From Aliarcobacter trophiarum LMG 25534 (GTDB lineage Bacteria > Campylobacterota > Campylobacteria > Campylobacterales > Arcobacteraceae), in contig NZ_CP031367.1 of NCBI RefSeq assembly GCF_003355515.1, positions 124,001-188,000 of the forward strand: a stretch of 64,000 nt of DNA, written 5' to 3'. Made by a program: the position numbers and the translations under genes. The notes under the pieces were generated by a model. It had not been told where the DNA came from and searched no databases. It saw only the letters and a program-made list of their open reading frames with translations. Below, piece by piece: positions 18,911 to 27,953 of the stretch. Position 1 is the stretch's first letter; each line of letters begins with the position of its first letter.

Positions 18911-20296
18911 TTAATAATATATTTTAAAAGTTGAACCAACTCCTATTTTTGAACTAATTTCTAATTTAAAATTATGAATATTTAAAATAGATTTAACTAT
19001 GAATAGCCCTAATCCTAAAGAGTTATTCCAGTTATTGCTAGTGGCTCTATAATATTTCTTAAATATATTTTCTAAATTATCTTGAGAAATTCCAATCCCT
19101 TTGTCACTAATAGTTAAGAAACTTTCATTTATCTCAATAGTTACATCTTCTTGTGAATACTTTAAAGCATTTTCAATTAGATTTGAAATAGCAATTCCTA
19201 ATAAAATTTCATCAGCATTTATCTCTTTATCTTCTCCTAAAACTTTTATCTCTCTACTCTTATATTTTATTTTTAAATCACTAATAGAGGTTTCTACTAT
19301 TTTTTTAATAGAAACTCTATTTAGAATTATATTATGGTTACTATCTTGAAGTTTTAAGGTAAGTCTTAGTTTATCAATTATTTGTGACATTTTATTTGAG
19401 TTTGTAAAAATTTTATTTAAAAATTTTGTCTTTAAAGTTTGTGATAAATTTTCATCTTCTATTAAAGTTTGGCTATATCCTGAAATTATGGCTATAGGGT
19501 TTTTGAATTCATGAGAAATAGCAGAGATGATATCATCTTTTTGTCTATTTGCTAAAGTTAATTTTGCAGTATGCTTTGCTTTTATCTCATCTTTTTTTGC
19601 TAGTTTTCTTGCAACTTTATTTAGAAGTTTTGCTATTTTATAAAACTCAAAAGTATAGTTTGATTGTAGAAATATTGGTTTTTTCTTATTTGTTATCTCT
19701 TTTAAAAAGTGCAAAATTGAGTCTGTTTCTCTTTTTATTTTGATACTAATAAAATATGTTGAGATAAAAGCTATTATTAGAAAGAAAGAGATATAAATAA
19801 AAATCTCAAAAGTTAGTTTTTTGAAATTATCAGTAATCTTATCTGTATAATCAGCCATTCTTATATAGTAAACTTCTCCATTAAAAGAGACTTTTTTTGC
19901 AATATATAATAAATCTTTATTAAGTGTTTCAGATAATCTTGTGTCTTTACCAAGACCAATATTTTTTGCTTCAATAATCTCAACTCTATTTGAGTGATTT
20001 TTAATATCATCAATCTTTTTATGACTTTCAGCTACTACTTCACCATTTCCATCTATGATTGAAACTCTTAAATTTAGTTTTTTACTTAAATCTTGAACAA
20101 TATTTTTGATACTATTTATCTCTTTTGTATCTTTTAGAATTATAGATAAAATATCAATACTTTGGATTAAGTTTTTTTCAACTTGATTTAAGTAGATATT
20201 TTTTGCCCAAAAATAAATTGTAATAGTAAGGGTTATTAAAATTGCAATAAATATTGTAAGGTAAGTTCGTAAAAAAAGTTGATGAATTTTTAACAA
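18911..20296 (-). CDS. phoR: Phosphate-locus sensor histidine kinase (PhoR role)
   Basis: Membrane kinase that probably controls the PhoB-type regulator encoded just upstream. Domains in order: first membrane helix (about 8-31), a periplasmic sensor of about 130 residues, a second helix (about 164-185), a linker without a strong HAMP, an H-box (AISHEFKNPIAIISGY), an N-box (NLIENALKYS), DKGIGIS and LGLGLFIVKS. The TTG start overlaps the phoB stop by seven bases (TTGTTAA), so translation is coupled. No downstream start would keep the first membrane helix. Unlike E. coli PhoR, it has a sizeable periplasmic domain, as seen in Campylobacter PhosS. Confidence 0.85.
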   Translation of the reverse strand: MLKIHQLFLRTYLTIFIAILITLTITIYFWAKNIYLNQVEKNLIQSIDILSIILKDTKEINSIKNIVQDLSKKLNLRVSIIDGNGEVVAESHKKIDDIKNHSNRVEIIEAKNIGLGKDTRLSETLNKDLLYIAKKVSFNGEVYYIRMADYTDKITDNFKKLTFEIFIYISFFLIIAFISTYFISIKIKRETDSILHFLKEITNKKKPIFLQSNYTFEFYKIAKLLNKVARKLAKKDEIKAKHTAKLTLANRQKDDIISAISHEFKNPIAIISGYSQTLIEDENLSQTLKTKFLNKIFTNSNKMSQIIDKLRLTLKLQDSNHNIILNRVSIKKIVETSISDLKIKYKSREIKVLGEDKEINADEILLGIAISNLIENALKYSQEDVTIEINESFLTISDKGIGISQDNLENIFKKYYRATSNNWNNSLGLGLFIVKSILNIHNFKLEISSKIGVGSTFKIYY

Positions 20297-20994
20297 AAGA
20301 TGTAACCCTCTCCACGAACAGATTTGATATAATTTTTCTTTGAATTTGGGTCTATCTTATCTTTTAATCTTTTGATAGCTACATTTACTGTTTTTTCCTG
20401 TTTATCCAAAGAGTCTTCCCAAACTTTTTCTAGTAAATACTCTCTAGTAAGAAGGATATTCTTATTTTTTATAAATTCTAAAAGAAGAGTTGTTTCCAAG
20501 GAAGTTAATTCAATATCTTCATTTTCAATTGAAAATATTTTATTTGAAAAATTATAAACAATATCTCTTACTTTTAAAACTTCCACATCTTTTGAAGATC
20601 TTTTTATAACAGATTTAACTCTTGCTAGAAGTTCTTGAATATTAAATGGTTTTGTAATATAGTCATCTGCATATGCTTCAAATCCATCTAAAATATCTTC
20701 TGATTTATCTTTTGCTGTAACATAAATAACTGGATTTTGGTAACCACAAGCTCTTATCTCTTTTATAAAAGTGGTACCTTCTATATTTGGAAGATTCCTA
20801 TCCATTAAAATTAAATCTATTTTCTCTTCATCTAAAACTTTTTTTACATTTTCATTTGTATTTAAAAACCCAATAGTTTCATAACCCTCTTTTTGCAAAG
20901 TAAATTCAAGAAGTTCAAGAATATCTTCTTCATCTTCTATTATTAAAATTAATTTATTTTTACCTGAAAGCAGTATTTCATTTTGTTTCATCAT
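20290..20994 (-). CDS. phoB: PhoB-type response regulator
   Basis: OmpR/PhoB-family activator: receiver domain (about 15-125, acceptor Asp in LILMDRNLPNIEG, KPF lysine) and a winged-helix DNA-binding domain (about 140-234, ending KNYIKSVRGEGYIFC). Its position inside the pst operon makes it the likely reader of the repeats upstream of pstS and pstC. It overlaps the psiE-like gene by 17 bases and phoR by 7. Two tandem ATG codons are possible starts, with a GAGGAAA ribosome site upstream. Confidence 0.88.
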   Translation of the reverse strand: MMKQNEILLSGKNKLILIIEDEEDILELLEFTLQKEGYETIGFLNTNENVKKVLDEEKIDLILMDRNLPNIEGTTFIKEIRACGYQNPVIYVTAKDKSEDILDGFEAYADDYITKPFNIQELLARVKSVIKRSSKDVEVLKVRDIVYNFSNKIFSIENEDIELTSLETTLLLEFIKNKNILLTREYLLEKVWEDSLDKQEKTVNVAIKRLKDKIDPNSKKNYIKSVRGEGYIFC

Positions 20995-21385
20995 ATTTTA
21001 TTTCCTCTGATTTCTTATTTACATCATTTGAAGATGGTGAAAATTTAATAGCCAATATTCTAAAAATAAAAAATATAAAAATAACAAACAATAAAAAGAC
21101 AATGTCAAAATAATCTTTATTCTTATTAGCAGAGAGAATTATAACTTCTCTTATTAAGAAGATTATAAAAATATCGAGAACATATCTAAGTCTTAATGTC
21201 TCTTTTCTTATAAAATCAGAAATCATTTTTACAACTTCCATAATTACAACAAATTCAAGCATTAGAATAATTGCTCTATAGAAGTCGTTTCCAGCTATAA
21301 CTACAGTTAAAAATATAACTGTAGCAACCAAAACTTCAAAGTTTGAACTAAAGTAGTTTGAGATTTTATTAATAGCTTTTTTCAT
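20978..21385 (-). CDS. PsiE-like membrane protein in the pho operon
   Basis: Membrane protein of 135 residues resembling the phosphate-starvation-inducible PsiE family, whose function is unknown. Four hydrophobic segments are visible, with the family-like core EVVKMISDFIRKETLRLRYVLDIFIIFLIREVII between the second and third. The C-terminal tail is charged and cytoplasmic. It lies between phoU and phoB and overlaps phoB, so it is expressed with the Pho system. The family call is by sequence resemblance plus context. Confidence 0.65.
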   Translation of the reverse strand: MKKAINKISNYFSSNFEVLVATVIFLTVVIAGNDFYRAIILMLEFVVIMEVVKMISDFIRKETLRLRYVLDIFIIFLIREVIILSANKNKDYFDIVFLLFVIFIFFIFRILAIKFSPSSNDVNKKSEEIKYDETK

Positions 21386-21409: not shown

Positions 21410-22078
21410 TTATGATTGAACTATATCTCCTCCTAGTTTGGCAAACTGCAATAAACTAGCTATAGAAACTGATCTATCTGCAATTTTTTCTAATCTTCTT
21501 AAACTACTTAAAAGGTCAAAATACTCCTTTGAAAGATCTAGTTTTTTTGTGATTAGTTTTAAGATATTTTTTTCTATCATTAAATATAAATCATCTGTTT
21601 TACTCTCTTCCACAATAACTTTTTGATACTTCTCTTCAACTTTAGAAGAGTCTTGTTCATTAATTATTGAAATTGCCGTTTTTGTAGATAATAAAGCTGA
21701 TTTTAGAAGAGGTATTGTGTACTCTAAAATAGTATTTGTATCTAAATCATCACTATAAGATTTTTTAAACATTTTTGCAAAATCTTTTGTATTTGCAGCT
21801 GTTCTTACTATCTCATTTGTAATTTTTAAAAAGGCAACCATACTTCTTAAATCTTTAGCTTCTGGAGTGTATAAAGCTAAAGTTGTAATAATAAGATTAT
21901 CAATCTCATTTGATTTCACTAAAAACTTTTTTTCACTAACTTCAATATTTTTTAGATTTTCTATCTTTCTTTCATTCAAAGCTTGCAAAGAAACCTCTAA
22001 GGCTCCAACAATATCTAAACCTAATTTCTCAACTTCACTTTTAATAAGTTTTAATTTATCTTCGTATGGTTTTAACAT
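21410..22078 (-). CDS. phoU: Phosphate signalling protein PhoU
   Basis: Cytoplasmic all-helical negative regulator that links the Pst transporter to the sensor kinase and limits phosphate uptake. The 222-residue protein shows two similar helical repeats, each with the PhoU acidic pattern (ARDLR-like LYTPEAKDLRSMVAFLKITNEIVR, and LLSSLRRLEKIADRSVSIAS). Its ATG overlaps the pstB stop (TAATG), so translation is coupled. Confidence 0.92.
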   Translation of the reverse strand: MLKPYEDKLKLIKSEVEKLGLDIVGALEVSLQALNERKIENLKNIEVSEKKFLVKSNEIDNLIITTLALYTPEAKDLRSMVAFLKITNEIVRTAANTKDFAKMFKKSYSDDLDTNTILEYTIPLLKSALLSTKTAISIINEQDSSKVEEKYQKVIVEESKTDDLYLMIEKNILKLITKKLDLSKEYFDLLSSLRRLEKIADRSVSIASLLQFAKLGGDIVQS

Positions 22079-22869
22079 TATCCAAATCTCCCTGTAATAT
22101 AATCTTCTGTTTTTTTATTGCTTGGATTAACAAAGATAGTCTCTGTTATATCATACTCTATTAATTTTCCTAAATGGAAAAATGCTGTATAGTCAGCGAC
22201 CCTTGCGGCTTGTTGCATATTATGAGTTACCGTTATGATTGTATAATCTTGTTTTAACTCAAGCATAAGTGCTTCGATTTTCTCTGTAGAAATTGGGTCA
22301 AGTGCTGATGTTGGTTCATCCATCAAAATAATTTCTGGTTTTATTGCAATTGTTCTTGCAATACAAAGTCTTTGTTGTTGACCACCTGAAAGTGATGTTC
22401 CTGGTTGGTGTAATTTATCTTTTACTTCATTCCAAAGTCCTGATTTTATTAGTGAAGTTTCAACTAACTCATCACACTCTTTCCCCTTTTTTACAATTCC
22501 ATGTTTTAAAGGCGCATAAGCAACATTGTCATAAATAGATTTTGGAAAAGGGTTTGGTTGTTGAAATACCATACCAACTCTTTTTCTAACACTTACTTCA
22601 TCTACATCTCTATCATAGATATTCTTTTTATCAATTATAATTTTTCCATCTATTTTTACAATAGGAATTAAATCATTCATTCTATTTATACATCTTAAAA
22701 ATGTTGATTTCCCACAACCAGATGGTCCAATTAAAGCAGTAATTTTATTTTGATATAAATTTAAATTTATATCAAATAAAGCTTGATTTAAACCATAAAA
22801 AAGATTTAGATTTTTAACATCTATTTTTGATTTTATCTCTTTATTCATTTTATATTTTCCTTTTACCAT
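22078..22869 (-). CDS. pstB: Phosphate ABC transporter ATP-binding protein
   Basis: ATPase of the high-affinity phosphate importer. Walker [10 protein letters not shown] lies near residue 47, the signature is [16 protein letters not shown], Walker B is [12 protein letters not shown], and the switch His is in [18 protein letters not shown]. Length 263. It overlaps the pstA end by seven bases. The motif [16 protein letters not shown] is typical of PstB. Confidence 0.97.
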
Positions 22870-24050
22870 TTTACTTCAAATTTTTTTCTTAAATAAATCG
22901 CTACTGCATTTAGTGAAATTAGTATTGATAATAGAACTAAAATTCCAGCTGCTGTTTTTTCAATATACATACCTTCAGGCATAGAAGCCCAAGTAAATAG
23001 TTGAGCTGGAATTACTGTTGCTGCTTGTGTAACCATAGTTGGAGCATCTGGGATAAAAGCAATCATTCCAATAATTATTAAAGGTGCAGTCTCTCCCATA
23101 GCTTGTGCTAAACCTATAATTGAACCAGTCATTATTCCTGGAAATGCAAGAGGTAAGACATGGTCTCTTGTAACTTGAATCTTATTTAATCCTAAGCCAT
23201 ATCCAGCTTGTCTTATACTATCAGGAACTGCTCTTAGAGCTGCTCTTGAACTTACAATAATAATAGGTAATGTCATAAGAGCAAGAGTTAGTCCTCCCAC
23301 CAAAGGCGAACTTCTAGGCATTCCAAAGAGATTTATAAATATAGCAAGTCCTAAAAGTCCAAATAGAATAGATGGAATAGCTGCAAGATTATTTATATTT
23401 ATTTCAATAAGTCTTGTAAATTTGTTGTCACCTGCAAACTCTTCTAGATAAATTGCAGTCATTACTCCAATTGGAAATGCAACAAGCATAGTTATAGTTA
23501 GAGTTAAAATAGAACCAATAACAGCTGAAAAAATACCAGCATACTCTGGAATTTTTGAGTCACCATTTGTAAAGAATATTGCATTAAACTTCTTTTTTAT
23601 TAAACCTTCAGCATATAACTCATTAACTGTTTCTATATCTTTATCTTTTAAATTATGATTATGATTTTTTACATATTGATCAACTTGACTACTTGCTAAA
23701 ATCCAAAGATTTTGAGTTGAATTCATATATGTTGGGTTTTTTTCTAATAACTTTGGCAAATCTCTAAGAGCAGCTCTTGATACTAAATTTCTATAAGATG
23801 TTGGAACTGCAAATCTTGTATCTTCCAAAGTTTTTTCACTAAAGGTTACATCCACTTTTACATAAGTTATATTAAATGCAGGAAGACCTTTGCCAATCAT
23901 ATCAAATAAGAAGAATGCTAAAAATGCTATTGAAAATATTAAAGAAGTTAGAGTGAACTTCTTAAATCTTTTTGCACTTGCATGTCTTTTTTTTAGTGTT
24001 GGGTCATAAAATGGATTATGAGCTTTATTTCTTTTTTTTCTTTTTATCAT
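22863..24050 (-). CDS. pstA: Phosphate ABC transporter permease PstA
   Basis: Inner-membrane permease subunit. At 395 residues it is longer than E. coli PstA (296). The extra length is an N-terminal basic stretch, one helix and a soluble periplasmic insert of about 100 residues ([16 protein letters not shown] to about residue 150). The core permease begins near residue 170 with six membrane segments, the EAA-type loop ([26 protein letters not shown]) and [12 protein letters not shown]. It overlaps pstC by four bases. Confidence 0.95.
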
Positions 24051-24979
24051 AATGTATTCACTTTATATTTTTCTTTGAATTTTCTAATTAGTGATAATGA
24101 AATCATATTTAAAATCAAGGTAACAACAAATAGTACAAGACCTAAAGCAAAGGCTGAAAGTGTTTCAGGTGAATTAAATTCGAAATCTCCAACTAATGAG
24201 TTTACTATTGTAACTGTAACTGTTGTCATATCTTCAAGAGGATTCCACGATAAATTTGGTCGTAAACCTGCTGCCATAACAACAATCATAGTCTCTCCTA
24301 AAGCTCTTGAAAGTGCAAGAAGTGACGCAGATATAATTCCAGGCATCGCACTTGGAATTACTATATTCTTTATAGTCTCACCATGAGTCATTCCTAAACC
24401 AAATGCTGCTTTTCTTTGACTATCTGGAACAGCTCTTATAACATCGTCACTTAAAGATGATATTAAAGGAATAATCATAATTCCCATAACAATTCCAGAT
24501 GCCAAGGCACTATTAAAAGTAGCTTCAAGTCCAAAAAAAGAAGCAACTTTTACAACAAGTGGAGCAACAGTAATAGCTGCAAAGAAACCATAAACAACCG
24601 TTGGAATACCAGCAAGGACTTCCAAAATAGGTTTTAAATAATCTCTTAATTTAGGACTTGCATATTCACTCATATAAATAGCACTTCCAAGACCAATAGG
24701 AATAGCAACAAGAAGTGCTATAATTGTGATTACAAATGTTCCCGCAAATATTGGTAATGCACCAAATTGACTATTTGCAACCCCTGGAGACCATGTTGTA
24801 CCTGTTAAAAAGTACCAAAAGCTTCTTAACTTAAAAAACTCTATAGCTTCAAATAGTATTGAAAATAAAATTCCAAAAGTTGTTAATATAGATATTACAG
24901 CTGCAAGGATAAGAGCAGATTTTATAAGCTTTTCATTTAGTTCTCTTCGTTTTTTTTCTGATTGAAGACTACTTAACAA
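24047..24979 (-). CDS. pstC: Phosphate ABC transporter permease PstC
   Basis: Inner-membrane permease subunit, 310 residues, six membrane segments, with AAFGLGMTHGETIKNIVIPSAMPGI as the ATPase-contacting loop and ALSRALGETMIVVMAAG. The start codon is TTG, with AAGG about seven bases upstream. The first gene of pstC-pstA-pstB-phoU-psiE-phoB-phoR, preceded by its own Pho-box promoter. Confidence 0.95.
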   Translation of the reverse strand: MLSSLQSEKKRRELNEKLIKSALILAAVISILTTFGILFSILFEAIEFFKLRSFWYFLTGTTWSPGVANSQFGALPIFAGTFVITIIALLVAIPIGLGSAIYMSEYASPKLRDYLKPILEVLAGIPTVVYGFFAAITVAPLVVKVASFFGLEATFNSALASGIVMGIMIIPLISSLSDDVIRAVPDSQRKAAFGLGMTHGETIKNIVIPSAMPGIISASLLALSRALGETMIVVMAAGLRPNLSWNPLEDMTTVTVTIVNSLVGDFEFNSPETLSAFALGLVLFVVTLILNMISLSLIRKFKEKYKVNTL

Positions 24980-25005: not shown

Positions 25006-25040
25006 GAAGTTTAATAGACTTTGATTACATTGTGGTTACA
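25006..25040 (-). promoter_or_regulatory. Candidate PhoB box and -10 element of the pstC operon
   Basis: Minus strand: direct repeat GTAACCA / GTAATCA with an 11-base period (25021-25040), then seven bases, then TAAACTTC (25006-25013) as the -10 region. The distance from box end to the pstC start is 42 bases. The same repeat, octamer and distances occur before pstS. The site starts immediately after the stop codon of the EAL protein gene. Confidence 0.8.
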
Positions 25041-25042
25041 GA

Positions 25043-26773
25043 TTATAAAACTTTATAAACTGGCTCTATTGATTTTTTTGATTCTCTTTTCATAAAGTTT
25101 AAAGTATCATCAAAATTTAAGATATTTGATTGAGGATTTATCTCTATAATAGCACTTGATACAGATAAAAAGTTGAAACTTCTAGTTATTCCAAATCTAT
25201 CTTTTGAAACAATATATCCTATCTCTTTGTCCTCTTTTGAGTATAAGTTTTTTACACTATATTTAAACTCATTTTGAATATCTAAAGTTAATGCAAAAAT
25301 ATCTTCAAAAGTAAAATCTGTTAATCCTACAAAAAAATCATCTCCACCAATATGAGCTATAAAACTATTTTTTGGATATCTTTTTTGTAATAACTCAGAG
25401 AATATAAGAATTGCTCTATCTCCTTGTCTAAAACCATAAATGTCATTAAAAGGTTTAAAATCATTAAAATCAAAGTAGATTATGTGAGTTATATTTATTT
25501 GAATATTTCTAAAAGAGTTACCAATAAACTTCTCAATTTGATTATTTCCAGGTAGTTTTGTTAGTGGATTTTGATTTGTTGCTATTTCAATATTTCTTTT
25601 ATAAGACATTGTTAAAAGAGAGTTTAGATTTATTAATCCCAAATATTTATCAGAGTTAGTTATAAAAATTCCAAGAGAGTTCTGAAAATTTAGATTATAT
25701 ATCTCTAAGATTTTATCAATTCCCCAAGATATTTCAACACTTAAAGCAGGTTTTAAATATTTTAAAAGAGTTGTTGAGAAATTTTGATTTTGTGCTAGAG
25801 ATAATCCATATTGAGAGTAAGATATTTTTTTGATTTCACTTTCATAAATAATTCCTAAGAAATATCCAAATTCATCAACTATTGGTACAAAATTATGCTC
25901 TGTACTCTTTTTAAAATGTAAGATTATATCATATAAAGAGCTATTCACAGGCATTGGTCTAATCTTATCTACAAATTGTTCATCTATAAATTTATTTTGA
26001 TTTTCTCTTTTATCATCCAAAATAAGGTTTGAGATGTTAGTGTAAATTGGCTCTATTTCATAAATATTTTTTGTTGGCTTTTGAACTAAAAACCCTTGTA
26101 TAAAATCAGCACCAATATCTTTACAAGTATAAAACTCTTTTTGGGTTTCTATACCCTCAGCAATTACTTGCATTCCCATAATATGTGCCATATCAATAAT
26201 AGAAGAGCAAAAAAGTTTTTTCTTTGAGTCTTGGTCTATATTTGATATAAAGAATCTATCAATTTTGATAATATTTGCTTCACTAAAATATAGAAGTTTA
26301 AGACCTGAAACTCCTATTCCGAAATCATCTATTGCAATAGAGTAACCACTTTGCTTGTATCTTTGAAGCATAGTAGAAAGAGCATTTTGTTCTATTGAAG
26401 TACCTTTTTCACTTAGTTCAAAGATTATTTTGTCTTTAGTTAAATTGTGTTTTGTAAGAATCTTTTCAGTATTACCAGAACTATAATTTTTATTATATAT
26501 TATTCTGTTATCAAGATTATAAAATAGTTTTAAATTTGTAATATTTAAATTTGCAAATTTTGAGATAGCTTTTTCTCTTAAAAGTAGATCAAATTCATAT
26601 AAATAATCATTACTAAATGCTAAATCAAAAAGATCATCAATCGTTGTAATATTTGGTATATTATGAACATTTCTTAAGAGTGCTTCAACAGCATATATTT
26701 TTCCAGTTTGTGCATAGATTATTGGTTGAAAAGCATAATCTAATTTATCTATTATTTCATTCCAATTAATCAT
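25043..26773 (-). CDS. EAL-CBS-GGDEF cyclic-di-GMP protein in the phosphate locus
   Basis: Probable c-di-GMP phosphodiesterase with a degenerate cyclase domain, 576 residues, cytoplasmic with no membrane segment. EAL domain about 8-235: Glu30 (EALL), Asn86, Glu119, Asp149-Asp150, Lys170, Glu206 and Gln226 are all present, so hydrolysis looks possible. A CBS pair spans about 268-390 and may bind a nucleotide. The GGDEF domain, about 400-560, has GGDDF at 476-480, a conservative change that may weaken cyclase activity or leave a GTP-binding regulatory role. It lies between pstS and the pstC operon on the same strand, with a terminator between it and pstS and no Pho box of its own. Confidence 0.9.
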   Translation of the reverse strand: MINWNEIIDKLDYAFQPIIYAQTGKIYAVEALLRNVHNIPNITTIDDLFDLAFSNDYLYEFDLLLREKAISKFANLNITNLKLFYNLDNRIIYNKNYSSGNTEKILTKHNLTKDKIIFELSEKGTSIEQNALSTMLQRYKQSGYSIAIDDFGIGVSGLKLLYFSEANIIKIDRFFISNIDQDSKKKLFCSSIIDMAHIMGMQVIAEGIETQKEFYTCKDIGADFIQGFLVQKPTKNIYEIEPIYTNISNLILDDKRENQNKFIDEQFVDKIRPMPVNSSLYDIILHFKKSTEHNFVPIVDEFGYFLGIIYESEIKKISYSQYGLSLAQNQNFSTTLLKYLKPALSVEISWGIDKILEIYNLNFQNSLGIFITNSDKYLGLINLNSLLTMSYKRNIEIATNQNPLTKLPGNNQIEKFIGNSFRNIQINITHIIYFDFNDFKPFNDIYGFRQGDRAILIFSELLQKRYPKNSFIAHIGGDDFFVGLTDFTFEDIFALTLDIQNEFKYSVKNLYSKEDKEIGYIVSKDRFGITRSFNFLSVSSAIIEINPQSNILNFDDTLNFMKRESKKSIEPVYKVL

Positions 26774-26836: not shown

Positions 26837-27892
26837 TTAGTGTTTTAAATTTTCTACTTTTAATTTCTCACTATTTAAAACTTTTGCTCTAGCTTTTGTT
26901 TTTACACTATTTGTTAATGGAATAAGTCCAATTTCAGTCAAAATTCCATCTTCTCCAATCATCTTTTCAGATACAAAAAGTTTTGTAAACTCTCTTAAAG
27001 CTGGAACATCTTTTGAGTGTTGATTTTTTATATAAAAGTACATAGACCTTGCTACTGGATATGAAGCATTTGCAATAGTCTCAACTGTTGGTAAAATATT
27101 ATCGATGCTAATAGCTACAACTTTATCTTTGTTTTCTGCTAAGAATGAGTATCCAAATATACCAATAGCAGCTTCATTTTTTGTAAGTTTTTGTACTATT
27201 AAGTTGTCATTTTCTCCACTTTCAACATAAACACCATCTGTTCTAATTTCAGAATATGTTTTATATTTCTTATTTGCAACTTCATCTTTTTTAAATAAAT
27301 CAGTATAAGCTGCTTTTTTCTCAAATACAGCTTGAAGAACTAACTCCTCAAAAGAGTCTCTAGTTCCTGATGATTTTGGTGGTCCATAAACAATGATTTC
27401 TCTATTTGGTAGGTTATTACTAATATCTGACCATTTTTTGTAAGGGTTTGCAATAAGTGTTTTTCCAAGAGCGTCTGGAACCTCTTTTGCAACAGCTAGT
27501 GCTAATTGTTCTTTTGTTACATTAAATCCTTGTACTTTTGAACTTTGTGCAATAGCAATTCCATCAAAACCAATTAAGGCTTCAGTTATATCTGTAACAC
27601 CATTTTCTTGACACATTTTAAATTCACTTGCTTTCATCTGTCTTGAAGCATTTGCAATATCTGGTGTATTTGTATTAACTCCAGCACAAAATAGTTTCAT
27701 TCCACCACCTGTTCCTGTTGATTCAACAACTGGTGTTGGAAATGATGTTGTAGCTCCAAACTCTTCAGCAACAGAAGATGAAAAAGGATAAACTGTTGAT
27801 GAACCAACAATTTTTATTTGCTCTCTTGCACTTAAAGTTGTAACCAATAGTGTACTTGCTATTAAAGCTATAGATGTTCTTTTTAAACTCAT
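26837..27892 (-). CDS. pstS: Periplasmic phosphate-binding protein
   Basis: High-affinity phosphate receptor of the Pst transporter. A signal peptide ends near residue 22 (TTLSA-RE), then comes the phosphate-loop motif IKIVGSSTVYPFSSSVAEEF and the TGTGGGMKLFC loop. The GPPKSSGTRDSFEELVL segment is also typical. It is 351 residues, of the longer family form. Expressed from its own Pho-box promoter and closed by a strong terminator, which fits the high copy number of a binding protein. Confidence 0.95.
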   Translation of the reverse strand: MSLKRTSIALIASTLLVTTLSAREQIKIVGSSTVYPFSSSVAEEFGATTSFPTPVVESTGTGGGMKLFCAGVNTNTPDIANASRQMKASEFKMCQENGVTDITEALIGFDGIAIAQSSKVQGFNVTKEQLALAVAKEVPDALGKTLIANPYKKWSDISNNLPNREIIVYGPPKSSGTRDSFEELVLQAVFEKKAAYTDLFKKDEVANKKYKTYSEIRTDGVYVESGENDNLIVQKLTKNEAAIGIFGYSFLAENKDKVVAISIDNILPTVETIANASYPVARSMYFYIKNQHSKDVPALREFTKLFVSEKMIGEDGILTEIGLIPLTNSVKTKARAKVLNSEKLKVENLKH

Positions 27893-27918: not shown

Positions 27919-27953
27919 GAAGTTTAGTTTTGCTTGGTTACAATTTGGTTACC
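27919..27953 (-). promoter_or_regulatory. Candidate PhoB box and -10 element of pstS
   Basis: Minus strand: direct repeat GTAACCAA-ATT-GTAACCAA (27934-27952, period 11), seven bases, then TAAACTTC (27919-27926). The box ends 42 bases before the pstS ATG, the same geometry as at pstC. The box starts right after the stop codon of the PhnA-like gene. Confidence 0.85.

What the first reader, a model, noticed from the sequence alone, without database searches (positions are those of the whole stretch)
27919..27953. Pho promoter with an 11-bp-period repeat at pstS
Minus strand: GTAACCAA-ATT-GTAACCAA, then exactly seven bases, then TAAACTTC, with 42 bases from the box end to ATG. The half-site differs from E. 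coli TGTCA and from my recollection of the C. jejuni PhosR box. It suggests a distinct PhoB recognition sequence in the Arcobacter group.
Basis: partly seen in the sequence, partly recalled or inferred. Interest (0 to 1): 0.65.

Follow-up and report, generated by a model that had tools for sequence, protein, structure and literature searches.

The report
Phosphate-starvation promoter of Campylobacterota
The repeat in front of pstS is a real, strongly conserved switch for phosphate starvation; it is not special to Arcobacter but the common form across a whole bacterial class, and it is the sister version of the switch already known in Campylobacter jejuni.

Summary
Upstream of pstS (minus strand) GTAACCAA-N3-GTAACCAA is followed by exactly 7 bases and TAAACTTC. 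The same module recurs upstream of pstC (25039-25008). It is conserved in 30/30 pstS upstreams of the genus, and in 31/31 genomes by pattern (55 sites, 46 at pst, reversed control 0). TAAACT is a -10 box, not a third repeat: relatives show TATAAT there. The spacing from the second half-site to the -10 (15 bp) equals that of the E. coli phoA promoter. A genome scan shows the module is not Arcobacter-specific. It occurs across Campylobacterota, where every site with a readable downstream gene precedes pst, phoX, PiT, phoB/phoU or porin genes. The window's PhoB and C. jejuni PhosR are reciprocal best hits. The C. jejuni pstS promoter is the same promoter with GTTTC in place of GTAAC. So this is a PhosR/PhoB box with a GTAAY half-site, a new variant of a known kind. 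Residue 197 of the recognition helix, base-contacting in E. coli PhoB, is V with GTAAY boxes, I with GTTTC and T with GTATC: a testable specificity switch, but resting on only 2-3 evolutionary events. No binding or expression data exist here.

The parts
27934..27952 (-). Pho (PhosR/PhoB) box of pstS: GTAACCAA-ATT-GTAACCAA, 11-bp period; begins 3 bp after the stop of the upstream yjdM/phnA-like gene
   Evidence: conserved 30/30 in genus
27921..27926 (-). -10 hexamer TAAACT of the pstS promoter, 15 bp from the G of the second half-site (7 bp from the box end)
   Evidence: TATAAT-like at the same position in other genera
25021..25039 (-). second Pho box, upstream of pstC: GTAACCACAATGTAATCAA
   Evidence: conserved in the genus
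25008..25013 (-). -10 hexamer TAAACT of the pstC promoter, same 7-bp spacer
26837..27892 (-). pstS, periplasmic phosphate-binding protein (PF12849)
25043..26773 (-). EAL-GGDEF (c-di-GMP) gene lying between pstS and pstC; would be co-transcribed from the pstS promoter
24047..24979 (-). pstC
22863..24050 (-). pstA
   Evidence: order kept in relatives
22078..22869 (-). pstB
   Evidence: order kept in relatives
21410..22078 (-). phoU
   Evidence: order kept in relatives
20978..21385 (-). PsiE-family membrane protein (PF06146, phosphate-starvation-inducible E)
20290..20994 (-). PhoB-type response regulator, the proposed reader of the box; reciprocal best hit of C. jejuni PhosR; recognition helix KTVNVAIKRLK
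18911..20296 (-). PhoR-type sensor histidine kinase (HisKA, HATPase_c, sCache-like)

Best explanation
The module is an activator-dependent sigma-70 promoter of the Pho regulon. Under phosphate limitation the sensor kinase (18911-20296) phosphorylates the PhoB/PhosR-type regulator (20290-20994). The regulator binds head-to-tail as a dimer to two 11-bp direct repeats with the half-site GTAAYCA, which take the place of the -35 element. It places RNA polymerase on the TAAACT (TATAAT-like) -10 box 15 bp downstream of the second half-site. Two copies drive pstS(+EAL-GGDEF) and pstC-pstA-pstB-phoU-psiE-phoB-phoR. The GTAAY half-site is the common Campylobacterota form; the Campylobacter genera carry the probably derived GTTTC/GTATC form read by PhosR. 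Shown here: the sequence module, its spacing, its conservation, its gene targets and the orthology of the regulators. Inferred: phosphorylation, binding, activation and the start site.
For: 30/30 same-genus pstS upstreams found by protein search have the box, with invariant GTAA columns and an invariant -10 spacing. Genus-wide: 31/31 genomes, 55 sites, reversed control 0; 46 sites are at pstS or pstC by position. Other family genera carry the same box with TATAAT or TATACT at the same spacing. E. coli phoA shows GTCAT-N6-GTCAC-N10-TATAGT, the identical geometry. C. jejuni (genome recognised by published primers) has exactly three GTTTCNAAAANGTTTC sites, before phoX, pstS and a third gene, with the same spacing to a -10. 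Window PhoB and C. jejuni PhosR are reciprocal best hits (43% identity, 165 bits against 99-103 for the next).
Against: No footprint, gel shift, start-site map or expression data are available for this organism. The C. jejuni box consensus and its gel-shift support are from memory, since Wosten 2006 is not in the library. Some Campylobacterota pst clusters with another PstS type lack the GTAAY box. A few genus hits are not Pho sites (hairpins in L084-L086).
Confidence: 0.92

Rival explanations
1. The GTAAY repeats are read by another OmpR-family regulator, not by the neighbouring PhoB.
For: The own genome encodes about ten or more related response regulators, and winged-helix regulators of this family commonly bind tandem repeats. 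A 4 x 11-bp GTAAY array sits before a DUF350-like gene with no obvious phosphate link.
Against: phoB lies in the same conserved gene cluster; in some genomes the box stands directly before phoB or phoU. The half-site changes together with helix residue 197 of this regulator. In C. jejuni pst and phoX are governed by the orthologue PhosR (PMC3197622, PMC9449129).
Confidence: 0.06
2. TAAACTTC is a third, degenerate regulator half-site rather than the -10 element.
For: It contains AAAC, slightly like GTAAC, and the trailing TTC is conserved too.
Against: It is out of the 11-bp register (15 bp); other genera have TATAAT, TATACT, TACAAT or TAGAAT there, which is a -10 pattern and not a half-site pattern.
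Confidence: 0.03
3. Chance repeat in AT-rich DNA.
For: Four exact 8-mer repeats at period 11 exist in the window.
Against: Conserved 30/30 with fixed spacing; control 0 against 55.
Confidence: 0.005

Closest known systems
C. jejuni PhosR box (GTTTCNAAAANGTTTC; Wosten et al. 2006, consensus recalled) and PhosSR
   Same: Same kind of genes (pstS, phoX), 11-bp direct repeat, near-identical linker, same 15-bp spacing to a TAAACT/TATACT -10, orthologous regulator.
   Different: Half-site GTAAY here, GTTTC there; helix residue 197 V here, I there. In C. jejuni phosR lies away from pst; here phoB-phoR close the pst cluster.
E. coli Pho box (TGTCAY, 11-bp period) and PhoB
   Same: Two tandem 11-bp units replacing -35, second half-site to -10 distance 15 bp as in phoA, OmpR/PhoB-family regulator.
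   Different: TGTCA there, TGTAA(C/T) here; helix RTVDVHIRRLR there, KTVNVAIKRLK here.

Membership tests
Pho-box promoter (PhoB type) | Two tandem direct repeats at an 11-bp period | tested here: met
Pho-box promoter (PhoB type) | Box replaces -35; -10 at fixed spacing as in E. coli phoA | tested here: met
   15 bp from second half-site in the window and in phoA
Pho-box promoter (PhoB type) | Sits before phosphate-acquisition genes and is conserved there | tested here: met
Pho-box promoter (PhoB type) | Bound by phosphorylated PhoB and induced by low phosphate | not testable with these tools
   needs footprint and expression data
E. coli-type Pho box | TGTCA half-site | tested here: not met
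   TGTAAY; one base differs
C. jejuni-type PhosR box | GTTTC half-site | tested here: not met
   AA in place of TT
PhosR/PhoB orthologue | Receiver + winged-helix domains and reciprocal best hit with PhosR | tested here: met

The most novel reading that the evidence does not exclude
One recognition-helix residue (Val197, E. coli numbering) sets the Pho half-site in Campylobacterota: V reads GTAAY, I reads GTTTC, T reads GTATC, so the Campylobacter box arose by a specificity switch from the form seen in this window, with the whole regulon's boxes changing together.
Probability: 0.35. Interest if true: 0.55.

Novelty: new variant of a known kind. Interest (0 to 1): 0.42.

Why it matters
It gives a sharp, low-noise motif (controls 0) that reads out the Pho regulon of a whole class of bacteria, mostly uncultured vent and sediment lineages. 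Already it points to unnamed outer-membrane porins, PhoX, PiT and a sulfatase/LtaS-like membrane enzyme as targets. It also links a known base-contacting residue to a natural change of half-site, a clean case for testing how a regulator and its regulon change together.

Tried and rejected
TAAACTTC as a third repeat: rejected, it is the -10. Arcobacter-specific recognition sequence: rejected by the genome scan. Helix residue 200 as the specificity determinant: rejected, G229 keeps K200 with a GTTTC box. Four genus hits away from pst (G015, G022, G024, G025): those of G015, G022 and G024 were read and lie in hairpin-like DNA without a convincing gene start; G025's, nearly identical, was not read. 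Statistical support for covariation: only 2 independent pairs, not significant, and one lineage (L226, L132; TT/TA with V) does not fit. The Wosten 2006 paper is not held; searches for an Arcobacter or epsilonproteobacterial Pho box in the open library found none.

Full report
Observation. On the minus strand the window reads GTAACCAA-ATT-GTAACCAA-GCAAAAC-TAAACTTC from 27952 to 27919, starting 3 bp after the stop of the upstream phnA/yjdM-like gene and ending 26 bp before the ATG of pstS. Both modules follow a stop codon within 3-4 bp.

More than chance. Exact 8-mer repeats at an 11-bp period occur four times in this 28% GC window, so the repeat alone proves little. Conservation does. Thirty pstS upstream regions from the same genus (the window's own included), collected by PstS protein similarity and not by motif, all carry the box. 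Both GTAA tetramers, the C at position 6 and the TAAA.TT block have zero or near-zero entropy, while the spacer and the upstream flank vary freely. A pattern with both half-sites and TANNNT at the fixed distance hits 31 of 31 genomes, 55 sites, with 0 sites for the reversed control; 46 are at pstS or pstC by position.

What TAAACT is. In other genera of the family and order the same position reads TATAAT, TATACT, TACAAT, TAGAAT. The boxes were found without asking for a -10. So this is a -10 hexamer. The distance from the G of the second half-site to the first T of the -10 is 15 bp, the same as in E. coli phoA, which was read here: GTCAT-N6-GTCAC-N10-TATAGT.

Range. In Campylobacterota every site with a readable downstream gene precedes pstS (41), an outer-membrane/porin-like protein (39), pstC (19), pstB (4), phoX (2), phoU, phoB or a PiT phosphate transporter, about 30 bp downstream; the two unassigned genes lie in Clostridia. 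One porin group matches Porin_5; two others match no Pfam family above its cut-off. So the box is class-wide.

Link to C. jejuni. It holds exactly three GTTTCNAAAANGTTTC sites, before a phoX-like gene, pstS and a third gene, each with a -10 at the same spacing. That consensus is my recollection of Wosten 2006, which is not held, but the three hits agree with it. Its pstS promoter GTTTCCAAAATGTTTCCAAGTTTTTTTAAACTTCC lines up with the window's GTAACCAAATTGTAACCAAGCAAAACTAAACTTCC: the half-sites differ only by TT for AA. Window PhoB and the C. jejuni PhosR are reciprocal best hits, 43% identical, 165 bits against 99-103 for the runner-up. The Campylobacter family holds GTTTC, GTATC and, in two outlying genera, GTAAY or mixed boxes.

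Recognition helix. Aligning regulators with box types gives 31 GTAA/GTAA and 13 GTTT/GTTT cases. Four columns of the whole protein separate the two sets; only one lies in the recognition helix and is invariant on each side: residue 197 (E. coli numbering), V with GTAA, I with GTTT. The GTAT boxes of the Campylobacter lineage go with T. In the E. coli PhoB-DNA complex Val197 and Thr194 touch thymines in both half-sites and Arg201 bonds a guanine (PMC3973317); Arg201 and the half-site G are kept in these regulators. Three genomes whose box was unknown when residue 197 was read were then checked: G249 (T) GTATC/GTTTC, G110 (V) GTAAC/GTAAT, G233 (I) GTTTC/GTTAT. Against this: the tree holds only about 3 changes at residue 197 and 2 of the box class, the independent-pairs test cannot reach significance, and one lineage (L226, L132) has TT/TA with V. 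It is a lead, not a proof.

Mechanism. Best reading: low phosphate, kinase, PhoB~P, head-to-tail dimer on the two 11-bp units in place of -35, polymerase placed on TAAACT, leaders of about 20 nt with a Shine-Dalgarno. Binding, phosphorylation and induction are inferred. The third own-genome site (G000:C1:493020, GTAATCAACTTGTAACCAA-N7-TAATAT) precedes a 632-aa sulfatase/LtaS-like membrane protein, and the same arrangement is found in G012.

Verdict. Real, strongly conserved, correctly read as a Pho promoter; the half-site is new to my knowledge, but the system is the PhosR/PhoB Pho box. The literature library covers only openly licensed papers, so prior description elsewhere cannot be excluded.

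Noticed in passing
window 25043-26773: An EAL-GGDEF (c-di-GMP) gene sits between pstS and pstC in the genus loci read in full; by distance it is missing between them in a few (G018, G020, G028) and in G035 (L092), where the pstC box is nevertheless kept.
   Followed up: partly
L091 1703-1750 (G000:C1:1566702): Four GTAAY half-sites at an exact 11-bp period (GTAATTAAGTTGTAACTAAACAGTAATTTAACTGTAAC) upstream of a 134-aa membrane gene that looks like DUF350; reader unknown, not checked in relatives.
   Followed up: no
L083 1049-2947 and site at G000:C1:493020-493051: Pho box before a sulfatase-domain (LtaS-like) 632-aa membrane protein after gmhA; same in G012 (L087); in G027 (L090) the box remains after gmhA but the gene is not there.
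   Followed up: partly
L111, L189, L129 and similar Sulfurimonas/Sulfurovum loci: 39 outer-membrane-type proteins directly behind the box; two groups match no Pfam family. Possible phosphate-induced porins.
   Followed up: partly
L088 (G023:C1:643306): Pho-like box before a chemoreceptor-like gene in one genome.
   Followed up: no
L344/L360/L367 (G206): The phosR orthologue is broken by stops in this Campylobacter-genus genome.
   Followed up: no
L240-L242, L247, L258: pst clusters with a different PstS type and a different regulator have TTTTACA-like repeats instead of GTAAY upstream.
   Followed up: no
window 20978-21385: PsiE-family (phosphate-starvation-inducible) membrane gene between phoU and phoB, kept across the genus loci read.
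   Followed up: partly
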